A stretch of 23,004 bases of DNA from a virus, in the IMG/VR virus record IMGVR_UViG_3300022602_000449, positions 1-23,004 of that record. One strand, given 5' to 3'. Shown here piece after piece: positions 2,918 to 12,264 of this stretch (the first letter of the stretch is position 1; every line of letters starts with the position of its first letter). The notes under the pieces were generated by a model, which saw nothing but the letters and a program-made list of their open reading frames with translations, was not told where the DNA came from and ran no database searches. A program made the translations under genes and the position numbers.

Positions 2918-3925
2918 TTATTCAGCAGTTTTACGATTGCGAATCATGCTAAGGATGTCTGCTGCCTTCTGGCTGCTATCACCACGAGGAGCGGTAGATA
3001 CTGGTGCAGATGCGACAGGAGCATCATCGGTATCAAAAGGAACATCATCCTCTTGAACTGCCGCAGGACGGCTGTATGCCACAGTAGGTTTTGCAGCAGG
3101 GGCAGATGGAACATCATCTGCATCTGGGTTATTACCCATGCCACTTGGCTTATAATACTGACCCCAACGATTTTCATCGTAGGTAGCACCATCAACAGAT
3201 GCCTCAAACATCTCCTTGATGATTTTCAATTCAGCATCGCCAGGCTTCTTTGGAAGGAAACTCTTCAAGTCAAACAAACCAAATGCATCAATTGCTGCAC
3301 GTTCAGTCTGAGTGAGAGGAGTTTCTTTACGGGCCCACTTACTGGTAGCATAATCTGCATACTGTCCCTTGCTAGTTTTAGTGATACTAAAGTCCAGACC
3401 ACGATCATAGTCTGTCGGTAGTTCCTCAATATCAGGGTCTTTCAATGCAGCAATGATCAAAGGATAAATGCTTGGGCTAATTACAAACCTACGAATTGGA
3501 TTCTCAGGAGTGCTGTCTTCGGTAAGTGGATTATCACGAACAAAGCCTTGGAAAAGATAAGAACGCTTCTTCCAATACTTACGACCCATTTCTTCAAGGC
3601 TCTTGTCCTTGAACCATGTGCGAACCTCTGTAAGAATGGAACAAGTTTCGTTCCACATTTCCATACAAGGAACCTGAACAGTCACGGGTTTGCTGTTCAT
3701 CTGACCTTTAACGCCTGCGAAAGGCAAGCGGATCATTGCACGTTCTACCCAGAAAAAGTCATTCTTTGCATCGCCATCAGGCAAGAACCTAATACGAGAA
3801 GTTGCAGTTTCAGGGATATTCCAGTGAGGGTATACGGCATTATCTCTGCCGCTGTTGTTGCCGTTGCCAGTTGAACGGGACTCTTGTTGTGCAAGTTTCG
3901 CACGGATTTCTGCCAATGAAGCCAT
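2918..3925 (-). CDS. 32: Single-stranded DNA-binding protein gp32
   Basis: Coats single-stranded DNA in replication, recombination and repair and interacts with UvsX/UvsY and the replisome. The 335-aa product has the gp32 layout. A basic N-terminal region for cooperative binding (residues 1-25) is followed by the OB-type core (about 30-220). An acidic, Ala/Pro-rich linker leads to a conserved C-terminal end, ILSMIRNRKTAE. In the part matching the T4 zinc site, C87 and C95 are present, but the position after CSI is Leu98, where T4 has Cys in CPVC, so zinc binding may be altered or lost. The ATG has an AAGGA site upstream and an exact late octamer 64 bases upstream. A hairpin follows the stop. 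Confidence 0.93.
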   Translation of the reverse strand: MASLAEIRAKLAQQESRSTGNGNNSGRDNAVYPHWNIPETATSRIRFLPDGDAKNDFFWVERAMIRLPFAGVKGQMNSKPVTVQVPCMEMWNETCSILTEVRTWFKDKSLEEMGRKYWKKRSYLFQGFVRDNPLTEDSTPENPIRRFVISPSIYPLIIAALKDPDIEELPTDYDRGLDFSITKTSKGQYADYATSKWARKETPLTQTERAAIDAFGLFDLKSFLPKKPGDAELKIIKEMFEASVDGATYDENRWGQYYKPSGMGNNPDADDVPSAPAAKPTVAYSRPAAVQEDDVPFDTDDAPVASAPVSTAPRGDSSQKAADILSMIRNRKTAE

Positions 3926-3988
3926 AATGTTTTTTTCCTTTTTGCCATATGTGCCATATACAATAGAACTCTCTCTACTGCATATATC

Positions 3989-3996
3989 TATTTATA
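3989..3996 (-). promoter_or_regulatory. T4-type late promoter of gp32
   Basis: An exact TATAAATA on the minus strand, 64 bases before the gp32 ATG, with an AAGGA ribosome site between. This is the consensus -10 element read by the phage sigma factor gp55 in T4. It lies in the intergenic region between two divergent genes, where a promoter is expected. gp32 is also expressed early or middle in T4, and no MotA-like box could be recognised here. Confidence 0.72.
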
Positions 3997-4064
3997 CATC
4001 AACTACGAACATGATGCAATATCTTTTTTTAATTTCTCGCATTTTTATATCAATAAGTATTTTT

Positions 4065-5219
4065 ATGTTTTTCAGCATCAGCGCCACGAAAAAAGAAAAC
4101 TTCTCATGTCATTTTGAATATGCCAACTGGGTAATCAATACTGACAATGGATGGATTTCTGCCCGTATAAACAATAAGCTAATAGTTTATAAAGGATACG
4201 CAGATTATGCTAATATAAACAATATACTTGAATCAATAGTAGAATCAGAAACACCAATCACAACTGGTAATTTTTGCTGCATTGTTGTTAGCAACGATGC
4301 GATTCAAATAAAAACCGATTTGTATAGAAGTTTTCCTATCTATTATGATGATAGCGAAATAACAAACCTAAATCAACTTAAAAATAATGTATATTCAACT
4401 GAATTGGTGCATATCAAATCAAACGAGATTATCAAGCAAAAATTCAAAATAATAGATGATTTAACAGAAAACACATTATCAGAAGATATTGTTTTAGATA
4501 AATTACATAATCTACTCAACAATAAGATCAAATCATTTGTAAGCCATAACATTCTACCATTAAAGATATTTTTAAGCGGCGGCTTAGATAGTATGTTAGT
4601 TTATAGTTATATGACTAAGTTTGCTAATGTTGAGATATTGAAGGGAGAGTTCTTTCAATTTGATGAGTTCTATTTAAAAAATCATAAAACATTAAAGGAT
4701 TTATGGGCTTACAATCAAATAAGCCATTTTGTAGAACCAACTATCTTTGTAAGTGGCACACCAGGCGATGAATATATGTTGCGTGGACCGTATACAGCAA
4801 ATTTATATTGTGCAGTGAATGGGAAAAATATCGCAAATCTATTAACCCAAGAACAATATGGCGATTGTTATCACAAACTATATTTTGATTTAGAGAAAAA
4901 CAAAAAGATATTTTATGAACCAGTTTCTAAGTTAGTTAAAAATAATAAGATATTTTGTTATAATTTTATCTGTAATACGTTACTCAATGACTATCAACAT
5001 CATCATTTGGGCAACACATTAACCTATACACCGCTACGAGATTTAGAAATTATAAAACTTCTCTTCCAATTGCCATTTGAAATTGCATTAAAGCAGATAA
5101 TGGATGGGTATATTAGTAAAAAATTAATTGAGAGAAATAATCCTCAATTATTAAATCATATAAGCAAATTTAAAAATTGTGATAATCATATGGCCAATCT
5201 TATAGGATTAGCCATATAA
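4065..5219 (+). CDS. Asparagine-synthase-like ATP-pyrophosphatase with degenerate glutaminase domain
   Basis: Plus-strand gene in a minus-strand block. From the ATG at 4065 the product is 384 aa; an ATG at 4011 would add a hydrophobic, possibly membrane-spanning stretch. Neither start has a good ribosome site, and still longer versions only read gp32 antisense. The C-terminal half carries the PP-loop LSGGLDS (residues 170-176) and a downstream GTPGDEY (231-237), matching the ATP-binding and GDGGDE-like motifs of asparagine synthase B. The first ~110 residues resemble the class II glutaminase fold (GNFCCIVV, TDLYRSFPIYY) but lack the N-terminal catalytic Cys, so glutamine hydrolysis looks lost. 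It may adenylate a carboxylate and amidate it with free ammonia, or modify a sugar or peptide. It is visibly AT-richer than its neighbours, suggesting transfer. Confidence 0.85.
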   Translation: MFFSISATKKENFSCHFEYANWVINTDNGWISARINNKLIVYKGYADYANINNILESIVESETPITTGNFCCIVVSNDAIQIKTDLYRSFPIYYDDSEITNLNQLKNNVYSTELVHIKSNEIIKQKFKIIDDLTENTLSEDIVLDKLHNLLNNKIKSFVSHNILPLKIFLSGGLDSMLVYSYMTKFANVEILKGEFFQFDEFYLKNHKTLKDLWAYNQISHFVEPTIFVSGTPGDEYMLRGPYTANLYCAVNGKNIANLLTQEQYGDCYHKLYFDLEKNKKIFYEPVSKLVKNNKIFCYNFICNTLLNDYQHHHLGNTLTYTPLRDLEIIKLLFQLPFEIALKQIMDGYISKKLIERNNPQLLNHISKFKNCDNHMANLIGLAI

Positions 5220-6006: not shown

Positions 6007-8295
6007 TGGGGTTTCCTTTTCTTTGCTTTCTTTAACAGTATAGGTTTTGCCATCTACTTCAAATTCTTTCTTACCAGCAGCCTTTGCTGCTGCAAGTTTA
6101 CCACTAAATTCATTACCTTCATTTGGTTCTTCGTTGACAGCATCTTCAAATGGATCAGTTTTTGTTTTTGGCTTCATCTTTTCTTTAATCCAAGCCATTG
6201 CTTGTTCTTTGTCATCAAAGTTTACAAGTTGGCGACTTGGATTGCGTTTTAGAACTACTTCATATCCACCATGCTGTGCTGGCTTGACCATATAAGGAAC
6301 TGGCTTGTCATCACCTTGCATTGCAGCAGCACCTGCGCCAATACCAGCAGCAAGAGCACCCGCAGCAATAGTTTTGCCAATGCCTTCACCCATGCCTTGT
6401 ATGCCTTCATGTGCCATCTGATGCAATAAATCACGATGATGGTCATTTAACCAATCAAGTTCCTGATCACTCATTGGAGTGCCATCTGTATATTCACCAA
6501 CGCTAAAATAAGCATCACTAAAATCTGGATAATCTTCAGTATCAACGCCATCAACTTGAAGAGAACGAACATCAACTTGCTTGCCATTAATTTCAATTGG
6601 CTGACTCATTGGACCTTCATTAACACTTTCGTGCATACCAATTTCTTGCATAACTTGCTTTACCATGATACTAATATCACTGCTACCAAGTTCTTCTGCA
6701 CCTTCATGTTGATATGCTACGCCACTAATTGCATCAATAACCTTATCAAGACCATGCGCACGAAGTAGTTTATTTGCAACACCACTGCTCATCATACGAT
6801 GAGTAATTGCATCAGTAATATCTTGAACGGTTGCGCCTTGTTCGTCTTCACCAATGCCCATGATTTCTTCGGCAAAGATTTCACTTTCGGTCTTCTTGCC
6901 TTTAATCTTTTCTGGCTTACGATTAGTATCTTGACGATATTGGCTTTCATCTTCTGGATGTTGCTTAATATGATTAAGTTCTTTTAAGTATTTCTGTGCA
7001 AGTAAAATAGCAAGTTTCTTATCATGATTATATTCAGGATCATCGTTGCGCTGTCCAAATGCTTCGCCTTCACTGCTCATAAGATCACCCATGAGTGCAG
7101 CAAAGTTAGCTACATCGTCACCATCTTTTGCAACAAGACGATTGGCAATATCACCAAGAATAGCAACAGCCATTGCTTTGCTATCAGTATAGCTACGGCT
7201 TGTCATTAGCTTGTCTAAGCCACTGTCAGCTTTTAGAACTAATTTAAATTCAGGAGTTTTAATCTTATTTTCTACGCTATTGCTAACTTCATCAAGTTTG
7301 TTAATAGTATTTTCACGAAGTCTCTTATATGCACCAGCAGCACTTGCAAGATAATTGTCAAGGTTTTCATTGTATGTTTGCTGAGTGAACCATGCCTTCA
7401 TTTCTGTTACATCTTCAACCTGTTCACCAAGAAACTCAGCAAGTGATTCTAAACTTTCATTAAATGAACGACTATTGTTGCTTAAACGATTAAGATGACG
7501 CTTTAAATTTTCTTTTACAGTTTGTGCTGCACGAATAACATTATTAGCTTCTGCTGCTTCAAATGTGCGTGTGCGAGTAGCACTTGCAAAGCGTCCCAGA
7601 TTACGCATTTCGTTTACTGCACGAGAAATAATTTGTCCATTTGAATCATAAGGATTGCCACCACGACTAACATGGTTTGCCATTGCCTTTGCACCACTTA
7701 CGCTTTTAAATGGAAGAAGGAATTTTTCACCGCTTTCATTTACAAGGAAGATGCGATCAACCTTTAACAAACGATTGTTTGGGTTTTCCAACATGCGCTC
7801 GTTATGAACAACATGAATACGAACATTGTTAAGGTTACCTTCGCTAACCTTGCCTTTGCGGTTCCATAGAACACGGCTTTCTTCTAATGATTCTTTCATT
7901 TTCTTCTTCTCTGGGTTTGTTTTTGTTAAAAATTCATAATCTCTGCGACTTAAAGTATCTTTGCTAATATCACGAACATCAAAGTTTAATAGATGTGATT
8001 TTGCCATACGACGCAATTCACGCAAAAAACGATACCAATAATCTTTATCTTCTGGTAACATGCGGTCTGTAATACTTGTATCAAAGAATACTTTTAATGA
8101 GTTACCATCAATAAGACTGCAAGTTATCTTACCATAATCACGACCGCTATCCTTGTCATGATAGGTAAAGTTAAAAAAACGGGCTGCTTCTGGATCAATA
8201 GTCGGCACACTCATTTCATCTCCCATAGTAATCTTAGGGAAACGATTGCGTAGTTTATAAAACAAGTCTGTTGCTGCGTTACTTAAGTCGGCCAT
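5431..8295 (-). CDS. Large unknown protein, probably virion or prohead associated
   Basis: A 954-aa protein without a named family that I recognise, placed directly after gp17. Residues 1-130 form a compact domain (PEDKDYWYRFLREL, LNFDVRDISKD). Residues about 130-520 are helical and charged. Residues 563-625 hold an acidic domain (DTEDYPDFSDAYFSVGEY). Residues about 639-658 form a Gly/Ala-rich hydrophobic stretch that could cross a membrane. The tail (764-954) is very acidic and has a calcium-binding-like DADGDGVPDWAD at 886-897. ESVSE/ESVNE motifs recur and resemble gp21-type protease sites. The start ATG has no clear ribosome site and follows the gp17 stop by 16 bases. I infer a structural or internal head protein from context; function unproven. 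Confidence 0.85.
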   Translation of the reverse strand: MADLSNAATDLFYKLRNRFPKITMGDEMSVPTIDPEAARFFNFTYHDKDSGRDYGKITCSLIDGNSLKVFFDTSITDRMLPEDKDYWYRFLRELRRMAKSHLLNFDVRDISKDTLSRRDYEFLTKTNPEKKKMKESLEESRVLWNRKGKVSEGNLNNVRIHVVHNERMLENPNNRLLKVDRIFLVNESGEKFLLPFKSVSGAKAMANHVSRGGNPYDSNGQIISRAVNEMRNLGRFASATRTRTFEAAEANNVIRAAQTVKENLKRHLNRLSNNSRSFNESLESLAEFLGEQVEDVTEMKAWFTQQTYNENLDNYLASAAGAYKRLRENTINKLDEVSNSVENKIKTPEFKLVLKADSGLDKLMTSRSYTDSKAMAVAILGDIANRLVAKDGDDVANFAALMGDLMSSEGEAFGQRNDDPEYNHDKKLAILLAQKYLKELNHIKQHPEDESQYRQDTNRKPEKIKGKKTESEIFAEEIMGIGEDEQGATVQDITDAITHRMMSSGVANKLLRAHGLDKVIDAISGVAYQHEGAEELGSSDISIMVKQVMQEIGMHESVNEGPMSQPIEINGKQVDVRSLQVDGVDTEDYPDFSDAYFSVGEYTDGTPMSDQELDWLNDHHRDLLHQMAHEGIQGMGEGIGKTIAAGALAAGIGAGAAAMQGDDKPVPYMVKPAQHGGYEVVLKRNPSRQLVNFDDKEQAMAWIKEKMKPKTKTDPFEDAVNEEPNEGNEFSGKLAAAKAAGKKEFEVDGKTYTVKESKEKETPMNKKIMEMRRLAGLPLMENYIYAQEESDEHEQEEHEGNEPSADDKAEYDQEGRMAKSELKTAKDAAAELQSILDDEENLPEWVQAKITKAVDYLDTARDYMKDNDVEYKDESVSEAATKKKPDADGDGVPDWADKKPGKDDNADEDDDKSEKKGMSDKQAKYFGKKNESVSESRAAADLVWLQAIAGIKRK

Positions 8296-8311
8296 AGAAT
8301 TATTTATCCAT

Positions 8312-9385
8312 TCACAACATTACGAACGGCATTGGTGGAATGATGTCAGCAGCGTCCATTGCTAATCCATCACTAATTCTACTATCATATTGACGCAAAT
8401 GTAATATCATACGAACTGCTAGCAATGTTGCCATTACAAGGTCATCAGTTTCGCCAACTTTGCCTTGATAACTAACGCCATGTGCCACGAATGTTTTTAA
8501 TTCACTTATTAAACTTTTACTGCATAGTTTAATCTTTCCTGTTTCCATCCACAATTTAAACTTAGAACATGCTGCAATCTTGCTTTTTGCAGTTGTATTA
8601 AATCCTTTACGGAATCTACGTCCACCGCCGCCAGGCTCGCTTAAAAAGCTACCTGGTATATTTTCTTCGCCAATATCTGCAATGGCATGAAGAGCCGCTT
8701 CACCAATGGTATTATTTTCTACACTATAATAGATGTTACCAGGATCATTAGTAACTTCTTTAATATATTTGCAAATCTCGGCTAAAATAGCAGCTTGTCG
8801 TTGAATAATAGTGAGGTTATGTTGCCATTCTGCTACTTGACGCATTGAGGTTGCATCGTACACCTGAATAGCTGCTGGATCGCCACCTGTGCCAAGACTT
8901 GGATCAAGTGCAACAATATAAACATGGTTGCGTTGTGGTTTTTCATACCAACGAACTTGTCCTTGTTTTTCAATTGGTTCTACCCCATTTAAATCTACTA
9001 ACACACTTGGTGCAATAAGTGTTTCATCATAAATGATAAACTCACAGTTGGAAACTAATATATCATTTGCGTAAAATCTATTATTTTTTTCAACATTAAA
9101 TATATCATATACCGCAGCAGATACATCTTCGGTTATGGAAATTATATTTGTAATTTCGTGATTATCTACTATAATTTTGGAATTCACTGTTAAATCTCGT
9201 GCACGAACTTTAACTAACCCTTCTATATAAAATTCGTGATCTGGGGTGCATTGTATAACTTTTCCATTCGCAAATCTAATCAGCAATACTGATTGTATTC
9301 CCTTTTCAAGAACACCATCGAATTTACTCCATCCAAAATCTGTCCAAATTTCAATATCTTTATTATTTTTTACTAATTTTTCCAC
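8312..9385 (-). CDS. 17: Large terminase gp17, C-terminal half with split-intein C-fragment
   Basis: The second half of a fractured terminase gene. It starts with GTG at 9383-9385, chosen because AGAAGGA stands 7 bases upstream. Residues 1-113 are an intein C-fragment: block B CTPDHEF, block F VYDIFNVEKNNRFYAN, and the splice end ILVSN followed by Cys114. Residues 114-357 are the terminase nuclease domain, which cuts the concatemer during packaging. Acidic residues fit the RNase H-like triad: D161 in ALDPS, E223 in VENN, and D314/D315 in ETDDLVMA. It begins 23 bases inside the homing endonuclease gene and should be spliced in trans to the product of 10080-11000. Joined exteins give about 519 aa against 610 in T4. 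Confidence 0.93.
   Translation of the reverse strand: MEKLVKNNKDIEIWTDFGWSKFDGVLEKGIQSVLLIRFANGKVIQCTPDHEFYIEGLVKVRARDLTVNSKIIVDNHEITNIISITEDVSAAVYDIFNVEKNNRFYANDILVSNCEFIIYDETLIAPSVLVDLNGVEPIEKQGQVRWYEKPQRNHVYIVALDPSLGTGGDPAAIQVYDATSMRQVAEWQHNLTIIQRQAAILAEICKYIKEVTNDPGNIYYSVENNTIGEAALHAIADIGEENIPGSFLSEPGGGGRRFRKGFNTTAKSKIAACSKFKLWMETGKIKLCSKSLISELKTFVAHGVSYQGKVGETDDLVMATLLAVRMILHLRQYDSRISDGLAMDAADIIPPMPFVML
9047..9385 (-). other. Split-intein C-fragment (113 aa)
   Basis: This encodes the intein part of the gp17 second half and ends with Asn113, directly before Cys+1 of the extein (codon 9044-9046). It carries block B (TPDH), block F and block G. The penultimate residue is Ser instead of the usual His, and the usual block F His is replaced (NNRFYAN). 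The long C-fragment paired with a very short N-fragment is the reverse of classical split inteins such as DnaE. It matches the atypical TerL inteins known from environmental metagenomes (AceL-TerL type). Confidence 0.9.
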
Positions 9386-10076
9386 GAGTAAATCCTTCTG
9401 GTTCTTGTCCTAATGTATACTGTTTGTTTATTTCACCGTTATTAAACCATAACAATCCTTTTTTATTGGATTTATTATTTGGATTTCTACCCTTCCAAAA
9501 TCCTTCTGGGCATGTAATAGCATATGTTTCAGTTTTGCCATTTGTGAACCAGGTTTTACCAGCAGCATTTCCAATTTTACCTTTTTTAGATTCACTAATT
9601 TTTTTATTTCGTTCTTCTCTTTGGGTAAAATCATAATATCCTTCACGACTTCTAATCAATTCGTGCGTATTTCTTTCTTCTTCGGACCAAACTGTACCTT
9701 TTTTTCTACCGCCAACACCTGACCTACTGACACCTAAATTTGTAGCAGGTTTTCCATATCGTGGGTTTTTTTCTCCAACTTTACTCAATGATATCATCTT
9801 TCGTTGTTCATCTGTTGGTTTCCATCCAGAGGGATTTCCTTTATTGGAGTTAGATATAATTTCATAAATTCTTTCTTCATCTTTCATTATGCCAGCAAGA
9901 CTTAACCAAGCAACTCTATCTTGCCATCTTCCATATTGTTCAAATAATATTCGATGTGCCTCTGCATGTTCTTCAATTGTTAAATGAACGAGATTATCTT
10001 GATCGTCTGTTCCGCCAGCGTGTTTAGGTATAATATGGTGCCAATGTTTCATATGTTTATTTATATGTTTCGTCAT
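9363..10076 (-). CDS. HNH homing endonuclease inserted between the terminase halves
   Basis: A 237-aa free-standing endonuclease occupying the break in gp17: it begins 3 bases after the stop of the N-half and ends 23 bases inside the C-half. The HNH core is at residues 12-45 (HWHHIIPKHAGG; H13/H14, N28, H37, H41). A NUMOD3-like linker follows (KMISLSKVGEKNPRYGK, about 94-110; KKISESKKGK, about 158-167). Two related C-terminal modules, 176-197 and 210-232, share WF(T/N)NG and PEGF and probably contact DNA. It probably cuts intein-free gp17 alleles and so spreads the whole cassette. The first ATG has no ribosome site; a second ATG at codon 9 follows an exact late octamer. Its base composition is AT-rich. 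Confidence 0.9.
   Translation of the reverse strand: MTKHINKHMKHWHHIIPKHAGGTDDQDNLVHLTIEEHAEAHRILFEQYGRWQDRVAWLSLAGIMKDEERIYEIISNSNKGNPSGWKPTDEQRKMISLSKVGEKNPRYGKPATNLGVSRSGVGGRKKGTVWSEEERNTHELIRSREGYYDFTQREERNKKISESKKGKIGNAAGKTWFTNGKTETYAITCPEGFWKGRNPNNKSNKKGLLWFNNGEINKQYTLGQEPEGFTRGKISKK
9393..9399 (-). promoter_or_regulatory. Ribosome site for the GTG start of the gp17 C-half
   Basis: AGAAGGA on the minus strand, 7 bases before GTG (9383-9385), inside the end of the endonuclease gene. It fixes the start of the intein C-fragment and shows that the second terminase half is translated as its own protein, not by frameshift or read-through. Confidence 0.75.
10058..10065 (-). promoter_or_regulatory. 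Late-promoter octamer inside the endonuclease start
   Basis: An exact TATAAATA spanning codons 4-7 of the homing endonuclease (His-Ile-Asn-Lys), just before its second ATG at 10050-10052. A transcript starting about 6 bases downstream would make the second ATG nearly leaderless, or would serve the gp17 C-half. Chance occurrence in AT-rich DNA is possible. Confidence 0.4.
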
Positions 10077-10079
10077 AAA

Positions 10080-11000
10080 TTACAAATTTAAATAATTTCG
10101 TAATTCAATTATAGACATAATTTTTATTTCACCAGATGAAAGTTTTATTTTAACATTTGTATCACCAACTAAACAATTATGCTCACGACGGAAACGATCT
10201 ATGCCAACGCTAGACATTTCACGTTCAGCCCAATCACGGTCGCGCTCTGGATGGCGATCCCATGTAGCAATAAATGGACTGAATCCATTACGACCAAGAG
10301 GAGTTTCATTGCCATGTGAATCAAATTTCTTGTTGGCTTCTTTCCAAATATCAGCAAATTGATCTTCGTCATTGTTAGGTGTAGATGTAATGATTGCTTT
10401 ACCACCCGTTGATAAAGTAGGACTAATAGATGTCCAAAATTCTTTGGCAATAGTAGGTCTAACAAAGGCCATTTCGTCACAGTATAATAATGAGATAGAC
10501 ATACCACGACCTGTTGTTTCAGTGGTAGTTGCGCTTACGATGCGGCTATCATTATCAAATCCAAGCGATCCCTTGTTATAATCAACTACGCCAGCACGAA
10601 TATGATCTGGACAGTTTTCATATGCGTATCTAATGCGTTGCATAATTTCCTGTGCGCCAGTATATTTGTTACTTGCAACAAGAATAGTGCTATCACTTAC
10701 AAACATTGCATACCATAATAGATAGCCCGCCGCTAGTGTGGATTTACCCATTTGGCGACCTAACATATTGATACTGAATCTAAAATTATGGTAATTTTGC
10801 AACAGTTCTTCTTGGTAATCAAATGGTACAAACTTCTGTCTACCACGAGTAGGATGTTGAATATAAAAGAAATTGCGTAAAAAATAATCTGGTCCAGTTT
10901 CGGGATCAGCACACAAACTAAATTCAATAATTTGTTGCTGCGTCATTTGCATACGTCTATGCGGTTTTTTAGTTAAATTGTTCTCTATTGGTTTTGCCAT
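10080..11000 (-). CDS. 17: Large terminase gp17, N-terminal half with split-intein N-fragment
   Basis: The packaging ATPase half of the large terminase, 306 aa. Walker A GRQMGKST is at 81-88, Walker B LLYCDE at 171-176, and the coupling motif TSTPNN at 205-210. The extein ends at Asn275 in FRREHN. From Cys276 to the stop are 31 residues that begin CLVGDTNVKIK, a clear intein block A (Cys1 and GDT). The protein stops there, so no nuclease domain follows; that is encoded in 8312-9385. It starts 4 bases after the stop of an upstream homing endonuclease and has a weak ribosome site, so it is probably coupled. Function requires joining to the second half. Confidence 0.95.
   Translation of the reverse strand: MAKPIENNLTKKPHRRMQMTQQQIIEFSLCADPETGPDYFLRNFFYIQHPTRGRQKFVPFDYQEELLQNYHNFRFSINMLGRQMGKSTLAAGYLLWYAMFVSDSTILVASNKYTGAQEIMQRIRYAYENCPDHIRAGVVDYNKGSLGFDNDSRIVSATTTETTGRGMSISLLYCDEMAFVRPTIAKEFWTSISPTLSTGGKAIITSTPNNDEDQFADIWKEANKKFDSHGNETPLGRNGFSPFIATWDRHPERDRDWAEREMSSVGIDRFRREHNCLVGDTNVKIKLSSGEIKIMSIIELRNYLNL
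10083..10175 (-). other. Split-intein N-fragment (31 aa)
   Basis: The 3' end of the gp17 N-half from Cys276 (codon 10173-10175) to the last sense codon. It contains block A (CLVGDT, then SSGEIKI) and a short helix-like end (IIELRNYLNL). The fragment is only slightly longer than the 25-residue N-fragment remembered for AceL-TerL. The split falls between block A and block B, the atypical position. Confidence 0.9.
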
Positions 11001-11004
11001 GACA

Positions 11005-11673
11005 TTATTTAATTGTATTATTTCTTTGTTTTAATGTTTTGGATATTTTTCGTCTTGTTTCTTCTGATAACTTTTTACCAGTATTTGAAATTGCAATTTT
11101 TTTCTTGTGTTCTTCGTTAAATTTTTTACCTTTTTTTGTTTCGCTCATTTTTTTACGAGTTTCTTCAGAAAATATTTGGGTTGCTCTTGCTTCTTTTAAT
11201 TTTATTACAGTTTCTTCTGAATGTGGACCAAATCTCCTGCCATCTTTTCCTCTTGATAGTGATATTTTTTTCTTTGTTTCTTCGGTTCTTTTTTTTCGTA
11301 ATTTTTGTTTATGTTCTTCTGATAATGGCCCTCTGTTTTTACATTCTTTTATCCATTCTTCTTTTAATTTACAATAAATTCTTGAAGAAACTTTAATTCG
11401 CAATTGATTTTTATTTTCCATAGTAGCAATCATCCAAGCAGCTTTTATCATTTTTGATTTATTTTTGCCTTCTGTCATCTTTGGTAAAAGCATATGACAT
11501 ATATAATGTTCTTTTGCTGTAAGAGAAACGAGATTGTCTTTGCTGTTATCGCCACCTAAACTTTTAGGTATAATATGATGTTTTTCGGTATAAATATCGG
11601 GTGATAAAATTCTTGACTTTGCCCTATTGACAATGTTATAGTATATGGTAGTATATTTGTTATGTAAATACAT
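11005..11673 (-). CDS. HNH homing endonuclease with NUMOD3 repeats, upstream of gp17
   Basis: A 222-aa Lys-rich protein ending 4 bases before gp17. The HNH core is at about residues 31-60 ([12 protein letters not shown]32/H33, N47, H56, H60). From about 96 to 218 the sequence is a run of NUMOD3-type DNA-binding units, seen as recurring (L/F)(S/N)EE(T/H)xxK(I/M/L) and KGKK elements. This build is typical of free-standing phage homing endonucleases. The start has AGAAGG 11 bases upstream. It is AT-rich compared with terminase. It is not inside an obvious intron, since the terminase start after it looks complete; its target may be a nearby gp17 site in related phages. Confidence 0.88.
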
Positions 11674-11754: not shown

Positions 11755-12264
11755 TTGTCTGATTGTTTAATTCTAAACGCTAATTATCAACCACTTTCTT
11801 GGCTACCGCTAAGCGTTATTCCATGGCAGCAAAGCATAAAGCTTCACTTCATGGATCGTATCAAGATTTTGGAATATTATGATGACTGGGAAATTCATAG
11901 TCCTTCAACGACTATGTTTGTGCCTGCGCTTGCCATAACCAAAGATTATCATAGCTTTAATAAAGGTGTTCGGTTTAGTCGCCAGAATTTATATTTGCGT
12001 GATTTGTTTCAATGCCAATACTGCGCAGAAACATTTGAACCGCATGATTTGAACATTGACCATGTAAAGCCATTGAGCAAGGGCGGCACGACTAATTGGG
12101 AAAACTGTGTTACTAGCTGTATTCCATGCAATAGTCGTAAGGGTAATATGTTTAAGCGACCGCTTCGTGAACCATTTAGACCAGATTACTGGACTCTAAC
12201 TGCTCGTCGCAAGCAATTTCATTATGATATGAAGCATCCTAGTTGGAAAGATTATATCAACTAG
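11755..12264 (+). CDS. Bacterial-type HNH endonuclease on the opposite strand
   Basis: A 169-aa protein on the plus strand. The start is TTG: a stop codon at 11749-11751 closes the frame upstream, and AAGG lies 7 bases before the TTG. The N-terminus (CLILNANYQPLSWLPLS, DRIKILEYY, SPSTTMFVPALA) matches a widespread bacterial HNH family (VLNADYRPLS...SPS...VP). The zinc-ribbon HNH core has C87-x2-C90, D102-H103, N117, and C122-x2-C125-N126. It therefore looks complete and active. It lacks the NUMOD3 repeats of the two neighbouring endonucleases and is a different family. Its end overlaps the convergent small gene by 8 bases. Possible roles are homing, attack on host or competitor DNA, or a nick in packaging; none is shown. 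Confidence 0.88.
   Translation: MSDCLILNANYQPLSWLPLSVIPWQQSIKLHFMDRIKILEYYDDWEIHSPSTTMFVPALAITKDYHSFNKGVRFSRQNLYLRDLFQCQYCAETFEPHDLNIDHVKPLSKGGTTNWENCVTSCIPCNSRKGNMFKRPLREPFRPDYWTLTARRKQFHYDMKHPSWKDYIN

What the first reader, a model, noticed from the sequence alone, without database searches (positions are those of the whole stretch)
8312..11000. Fractured large-terminase gene: atypically split intein with a homing endonuclease gene between the halves
The gp17 ATPase half ends in a 31-aa intein N-fragment (C276, CLVGDT). The nuclease half begins with a 113-aa intein C-fragment ending ILVSN before Cys. A complete HNH gene fits between them with 3 bases before it and a 23-base overlap after it. 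The ATPase motifs and the nuclease D-E-D are all present in the two exteins, so a working terminase of about 519 aa requires trans-splicing. This resembles the fractured-gene split inteins and AceL-TerL known from metagenomes, but with an intact endonuclease in place. It would make packaging depend on a protein-joining step between two separately translated genes.
Basis: partly seen in the sequence, partly recalled or inferred. Interest (0 to 1): 0.92.

Follow-up and report, generated by a model that had tools for sequence, protein, structure and literature searches.

The report
Phage packaging gene split by intein
The DNA-packaging motor gene of an uncultured phage is broken into two genes, each ending in half of a self-removing protein splicer with a homing-endonuclease gene between them; this arrangement is already known, but its many relatives show such breaks being made, multiplied and probably healed.

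Summary
On the minus strand, TerL's ATPase half (10080-11000) ends in a 31-aa intein N-fragment. An intact HNH gene (9363-10076) follows after 3 bases. The nuclease half (8312-9385, GTG start) begins with a 113-aa intein C-fragment and overlaps the HNH gene by 23 bases. Sisters L084 and L085 keep the arrangement; relatives L001-L011 (84-94% identical exteins) carry the uninterrupted gene, so the insert is 1129 bp at REHN|CEF. The C-fragment profile's best solved relative is CatC, the engineered consensus of atypically split TerL inteins; structure prediction gives an intein (HINT) fold. Protein trans-splicing is by far the best explanation, but untested. It is not new in kind: fractured genes with an endonuclease between the halves, and atypically split TerL inteins, are published, and PX29 gp17A/17B is so annotated in GenBank. 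New here is the family picture: 81 loci; HNH, GIY-YIG or DUF7487 nucleases at one site; the endonuclease's last codons supplying the ribosome-binding site and start of the downstream half; endonuclease-less loci retaining only that tail; contiguous inteins carrying it as an out-of-frame fossil, implying re-fusion; TerL genes in three or four pieces.

The parts
10080..11000 (-). TerL N-half gene: ATPase extein plus intein N-fragment, 306 aa
   Evidence: Terminase_6N E=3e-14; PHROG terminase large subunit E=9e-65
10176..11000 (-). N-extein, 275 aa, ATPase domain, Walker A RQMGKS, ends FRREHN
   Evidence: 87-94% identical to uninterrupted TerL of L001-L011
10083..10175 (-). intein N-fragment IN, 31 aa, CLVGDT...NYLNL, Cys1
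   Evidence: every split relative carries a Cys-initial IN of 29-37 aa at this place
9363..10076 (-). HNH/NUMOD3 homing endonuclease gene, 237 aa
   Evidence: HHIIP...N...H residues kept in relatives; dN/dS about 0.1 against both sisters
9393..9398 (-). GAAGGA ribosome-binding site of the C-half, 7 nt before its GTG, read as part of the PEGF codons of the HNH gene
   Evidence: such a motif precedes 59 of 73 C-half starts against 7 of 237 internal ATG/GTG codons
9363..9385 (-). 23-bp overlap: HNH tail RGKISKK* and start of the C-half MEKLVKN in two frames
8312..9385 (-). TerL C-half gene: intein C-fragment plus nuclease extein, 357 aa, GTG start
9047..9385 (-). intein C-fragment IC, 113 aa, block B TPDH, block F YDIFNVEKNNRFYA, ends ILVSN
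   Evidence: profile best PDB hit CatC 6dsl E=3e-16, VidaL 1e-13; HINT fold
8315..9046 (-). C-extein, 244 aa, RNase H-like nuclease, begins CEF
   Evidence: Terminase_6C E=2e-6; T4/RB49 gp17 nuclease structures
9047..10175 (-). whole 1129-bp insert absent from intein-free relatives
   Evidence: L001-L012 align across the junction without a gap

Best explanation
The locus is a fractured gene. A mobile element made of a split intein and a homing endonuclease gene sits at one exact site of terL (REHN|CEF) in the region joining the ATPase and nuclease parts. Three genes are read one after the other: TerL-N with a 31-aa intein tail; the HNH endonuclease; and TerL-C with a 113-aa intein head, started from a ribosome-binding site and GTG that lie inside the last codons of the endonuclease gene. 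The two intein pieces associate into one HINT fold; Cys1 and Cys+1 attack, Asn113 cyclises, the intein leaves and a 519-aa TerL results. The endonuclease is expected to cut intein-free copies of terL in co-infecting relatives so that the element is copied in. Shown by sequence: gene arrangement, intein family and predicted fold, conserved catalytic residues, empty-site alleles, patchy distribution, selection on every part. Inferred: trans-splicing in the infected cell, cleavage and homing.
For: Anatomy and sisters. The IC profile hits solved inteins, best CatC (6dsl), the consensus of atypically split TerL inteins, then VidaL. AlphaFold2 of the window IC has mean pLDDT 90 and matches inteins including CatC; a naturally contiguous relative (L094) gives pLDDT 91 and best match VidaL at TM 0.79-0.88. 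Cys1 present in every split locus whose N-half is on the contig; terminal Asn and block F Asp 70/70; block B His invariant. Empty site, insert exactly 1129 bp. dN/dS: IC 0.18-0.26, IN 0.28-0.45, HNH 0.09-0.11, exteins 0.05-0.07. Intein presence is scattered over the TerL tree: at least 11 changes forced by well-supported branches. A fractured (L084) and an intein-free (L003) relative come from the same metagenome number, 3300021142. Related GOS-TerL and AceL-TerL are reported to trans-splice (PMC11766414).
Against: No protein or expression data. The window IC has Asn where most relatives have the block F His (41 of 70 have His, 13 Asn) and Ser as penultimate residue (45 of 70); both sisters share this, so it looks tolerated, but the splicing rate cannot be predicted. 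The HNH Pfam hit is just under its curated cut-off. Endonuclease target and activity are untested. The IN+IC complex of the window itself was not folded; a contiguous relative stood in for it. The tree is a quick one on the C-extein alone.
Confidence: 0.88

Rival explanations
1. The two halves work as separate polypeptides that assemble without being joined, as reported for a ribonucleotide reductase split by a homing endonuclease; the intein pieces are dead remains.
For: A split nucleotide reductase that keeps function as two peptides is known (cited in PMC10448857). ATPase and nuclease are separate domains.
Against: Intein residues needed for splicing but not for assembly are kept: Cys1 throughout, Asn and block F Asp 70/70, block B His, and IC is under purifying selection. 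Contiguous relatives with a complete intein at the same site show that the intein remains usable.
Confidence: 0.06
2. A single ORF is read by stop-codon readthrough and frameshifting (or sequencing errors hide one ORF), giving an ordinary intein with an internal HNH domain that splices in cis.
For: N-half and HNH are in one frame, separated by TAA and one codon.
Against: The N-half-to-HNH spacing varies among relatives (for example 3 nt in the window and L084, 26 in L086, 21 in L087), so the frame is not kept. Joining HNH to the C-half needs a +1 shift, and the C-half frame has stops 14 and 20 codons upstream of its GTG. The C-half has its own conserved ribosome-binding site. Two sisters show the same breaks.
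Confidence: 0.02
3. A group I or II intron carrying the HNH gene is inserted inside the intein coding sequence and is removed from the mRNA.
For: HNH/NUMOD3 proteins are common in phage introns; the terL of cholera phage ICP1 is interrupted by an intron (PMC10448857), and a Campylobacter phage paper reports an intein and an intron in terL (PMC3322345).
Against: No Rfam hit in the window at gathering threshold, or at E<=1 in 8200-11100. There is no room for a ribozyme: 3 nt on one side and a 23-nt overlap on the other. Relatives without the HEG keep two separate ORFs (L014, L119).
Confidence: 0.01
4. A dead or decaying insertion: terL of this phage is a pseudogene or the contig is a hybrid of two strains.
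For: Metagenomic record; no experimental data.
Against: Both exteins have dN/dS of 0.05-0.07 against the sisters, all motifs are intact, and three contigs from different metagenomes share the arrangement. Cultured phages carry the same layout.
Confidence: 0.02

Closest known systems
Fractured genes with split inteins and intervening homing endonuclease (Dassa et al. 2009, NAR 37:2560; original not held, content recalled; arrangement stated in PMC7891396)
   Same: A conserved enzyme gene broken by a split intein with a free-standing endonuclease gene between the halves; phage origin.
   Different: As recalled, half of the first loci had Vsr-related endonucleases; here HNH/NUMOD3.
Atypically split TerL inteins: AceL-TerL, GOS-TerL, Cat (6dsl), VidaL (6vgv)
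   Same: Terminase large subunit for the first three, very short IN (25-37 aa reported, 31 here), long IC (104 aa reported for Cat, 113 here), Cys+1, HINT fold; CatC is the best profile hit in the PDB.
   Different: Own lineage; block F Asn and penultimate Ser; splicing not measured.
Aeromonas phage PX29 gp17A/gp17B (GU396103)
   Same: Cultured T4-like phage with split gp17, annotated N-intein, GIY-YIG endonuclease and C-intein.
   Different: The endonuclease is in the same ORF as the C-half; different nuclease class; distant TerL.
Serratia phage 92A1 and Providencia phage PSTRCR_127 (Straboviridae)
   Same: Cultured phages with the same three-gene layout in terL, overlapping ORFs and a homologous intein C-fragment (30-32% identical).
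   Different: SegE-like GIY-YIG endonuclease; junction QEH|CAEF.
Pseudomonas phage MIJ3 PolB split intein with HNH gene (PMC6892783)
   Same: Split intein with an HNH endonuclease gene between the halves in a jumbo phage.
   Different: DNA polymerase B; splice point in the usual place (long IN).

Membership tests
Fractured gene | Essential enzyme coding region broken in two by a split intein | tested here: met
   intact terL in relatives
Fractured gene | Free-standing endonuclease gene between the halves | tested here: met
   237-aa HNH/NUMOD3 ORF; PHROG homing endonuclease E=2e-17
Fractured gene | Protein trans-splicing restores the enzyme | not testable with these tools
   needs expression or mass spectrometry
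Fractured gene | Endonuclease drives homing into intein-free alleles | tested here: inconclusive
   empty alleles, patchy distribution, HNH dN/dS about 0.1; no cleavage assay
Atypically split TerL intein | Short IN split near the N-terminus, long IC | tested here: met
   31 aa + 113 aa; published 25-37 and 104
Atypically split TerL intein | Sequence kinship to Cat/VidaL | tested here: met
   profile E=3e-16 and 1e-13; window C-half alone E=4e-5 to CatC
Atypically split TerL intein | HINT fold | tested here: met
   IC model pLDDT 90; contiguous relative pLDDT 91, best match VidaL
Atypically split TerL intein | Same insertion site as AceL-TerL | not tested
   native AceL-TerL locus not available in the tools; recalled to be CEF
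Class 1 intein | Cys1, block B TxxH, block F Asp, terminal Asn, Cys+1 | tested here: met
Group I/II intron-borne HNH | Ribozyme core around the endonuclease gene | tested here: not met
   no space

The most novel reading that the evidence does not exclude
At this one terL site, inteins pass through a cycle: a homing endonuclease gene fractures the intein gene and its own last codons serve as ribosome-binding site, start codon and first residues of the downstream half; the endonuclease then decays, leaving only that tail because the half-gene needs it; finally deletions re-fuse the halves into a contiguous mini-intein that carries the endonuclease tail as an out-of-frame fossil. In some phages three such breaks cut TerL into four pieces that must be joined in the right order.
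Probability: 0.6. Interest if true: 0.72.

Novelty: new member of a known kind. Interest (0 to 1): 0.52.

Why it matters
The window alone adds one well-documented fractured terminase. The family around it bears on how split inteins arise. Reviews describe mini-inteins breaking into split inteins (PMC7765530); here the reverse step leaves a readable scar, and the endonuclease itself appears to supply the start signal that makes the break survivable. Cultured phages with fractured TerL, among them a Tequatrovirus of E. coli (HY03), make it testable whether an essential motor is assembled by protein ligation during infection, and whether one protein can be built from three or four separately translated pieces.

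Tried and rejected
Group I/II intron: no Rfam match at gathering threshold in the window, or at E<=1 in the region. Readthrough/frameshift fusion: spacing not conserved, stops in the C-half frame. Block F Asn as a sign of a dead intein: rejected because 29 of 70 distinct relatives lack His there and both sisters share Asn. An alignment mixing separate IN and IC fragments (A3) misaligned the short INs and was dropped. The Dassa 2009 paper is not in the library. The careful phylogeny did not finish; the quick tree was used.

Full report
What is there. The window is an IMG/VR virus record of 23,004 bp. On its minus strand three ORFs lie in series. The first (10080-11000) is the ATPase half of a T4-type large terminase, followed by 31 residues that start with Cys276. 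The second (9363-10076), after 3 bases, is an HNH/NUMOD3 endonuclease of 237 aa. The third (8312-9385) starts at GTG 22 bases before the end of the HNH ORF and carries a 113-residue intein C-fragment ending in Asn, then Cys-Glu-Phe and the RNase H-like nuclease half. Family searches agree: Terminase_6N, Terminase_6C, Intein_splicing, NUMOD3, and a PHROG homing endonuclease.

It is real. Two further contigs, L084 and L085, encode the same three genes with the same junctions. Between window, L084 and L085, dN/dS is 0.05-0.07 in both exteins, 0.09-0.11 in the HNH gene, 0.18-0.26 in the intein C-fragment and 0.28-0.45 in the very short N-fragment. Everything, the endonuclease included, is therefore under purifying selection. 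The nearest intein-free relatives (L001-L011, 84-94% identical exteins) have one uninterrupted terL; across the junction they align without a gap, so the insert is 1129 bp, between 10176 and 9046. L084 and the intein-free L003 carry the same metagenome number, 3300021142.

It is an atypically split TerL intein. A profile of the C-fragment finds as its best solved structure CatC (6dsl, E=3e-16), which was designed from atypically split TerL inteins, then VidaL. AlphaFold2 gives the window C-fragment a confident fold (pLDDT 90) that matches inteins including CatC. A relative in which the two parts are naturally one chain (L094) folds with pLDDT 91 and matches VidaL best. Cys1 is present in every split locus with the N-half on the contig; the terminal Asn and block F Asp are in 70 of 70 distinct C-fragments. 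The window has Asn in place of the block F His and Ser before the final Asn; both are common in the family and shared by both sisters. AceL-TerL and GOS-TerL, reported to trans-splice (PMC11766414), have 25- and 37-aa N-fragments.

The family. Two scans of IMG/VR and the two cultured phages gave 81 loci with this intein at this site, some near-identical. In 64 both halves are on the contig as separate ORFs. Between them lies an HNH gene (34 loci), a GIY-YIG gene (12), a DUF7487 protein (10), a SegE-like GIY-YIG gene (the 2 cultured Straboviridae), or no full endonuclease (6). Six loci have a contiguous intein, and in 11 the N-half is off the contig. So endonucleases of different classes have come to occupy one place. 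The intein state is scattered over the TerL tree: well-supported branches alone force at least 11 changes (quick tree, C-extein only). The window and its two sisters form a small group (SH-aLRT 90) inside a group of 14 of which 11 have no intein.

The endonuclease tail is also the start of the next gene. In the HNH and most GIY-YIG loci the last codons of the endonuclease read (P)EGF-x-RGRIxKK-stop. The same DNA, one frame over, holds GAAGGA, a 7-nt spacer and GTG, and codes for the first seven residues of the C-half. A ribosome-binding motif precedes 59 of 73 C-half starts but only 7 of 237 internal ATG/GTG codons. Two loci that lost the endonuclease (L014, L119) keep only its last 28 or so codons...TNGIINRQFKENQQEEGFIRGRIIKK*, directly before and across the C-half start. 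In L109/L110 the N-fragment is fused in frame to the endonuclease tail. Most telling, contiguous inteins L094/L095 and L099 contain, out of frame, EGFVRGRILKK* and EGFHRGRISKK*. The simplest reading is that they were once split and were re-fused after the endonuclease was deleted; on the tree L094/L095 sit next to split L018, and L099 inside a mostly split group. L144/L146/L147 are contiguous without this scar.

More than one break. L032/L034, L092, L104, L123 and L148 have TerL in three pieces, with a second split intein just before the Walker B DE. L022 and L158/L161 have four pieces, with a further split intein inside the Walker A motif (GK|TT); all three junctions keep Cys1 and the terminal Asn. 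No report of a natural four-piece, three-split-intein protein was found in the held library, which is not proof of absence.

What is known. Fractured genes were described by Dassa et al. 2009 (recalled; not held). [quoted passage not shown] PMC6892783 reports an HNH gene between split-intein halves of PolB in phage MIJ3. GenBank annotates gp17A/17B of PX29 with N-intein, GIY-YIG and C-intein. E. coli phage HY03 has terL as three ORFs, with junction IDE|C...HN|CAFIPNF. The window is thus a new member of a known kind, and the intact endonuclease is part of that kind, not a departure from it.

Mechanism and limits. Shown: arrangement, family, predicted fold, conserved residues, empty sites, selection. 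Inferred: trans-splicing in the cell, homing, order of the evolutionary steps. Rivals (unspliced halves working together, readthrough/frameshift, intron, dead gene) each conflict with the data given above, but the first can be excluded only by experiment.

Noticed in passing
L022:373-5438; L158:3373-8364; L161:5537-10528: TerL encoded in four pieces with three split inteins (inside Walker A GK|TT, before the Walker B DE, and at HN|CEF) and two endonuclease genes. L158 and L161 are near-identical contigs; L022 is a separate lineage.
   Followed up: partly
L032/L034, L092, L104, L123, L148: TerL in three pieces, two split inteins with different endonuclease classes between the pieces.
   Followed up: partly
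L094:5893-6045, L095, L099:2548-2690: Contiguous mini-inteins carry the endonuclease tail EGFxRGRIxKK* out of frame, a scar that implies re-fusion after loss of the endonuclease gene.
   Followed up: yes
L014:1228-1330, L119:5150-5250: Endonuclease deleted except for about its last 28 codons, which hold the ribosome-binding site and start of the C-half.
   Followed up: yes
11005-11673 (-): A second HNH/NUMOD3 gene ends 4 bases before the TerL N-half; it is absent from sisters L084/L085 and from L001/L002, so it is a separate, window-only insertion.
   Followed up: partly
11755-12264 (+): A third HNH protein (HNH_5 E=4e-15) on the opposite strand.
   Followed up: no
L186 (KR269718, Escherichia phage HY03): Cultured Tequatrovirus with terL as three ORFs: split intein before the Walker B region and a 199-aa ORF between; other E. 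coli, Shigella and Salmonella phage records match the same intein fragment.
   Followed up: partly
L188 (HE815464, Campylobacter phage CP21): The TerL C-part ORF carries two intein-like segments in tandem, unannotated at 93342-93638 of the record.
   Followed up: no
3855-5219 (+): 454-aa ORF with a weak match to asparagine synthase (E=0.012, below cut-off), between structural and recombination genes.
   Followed up: no
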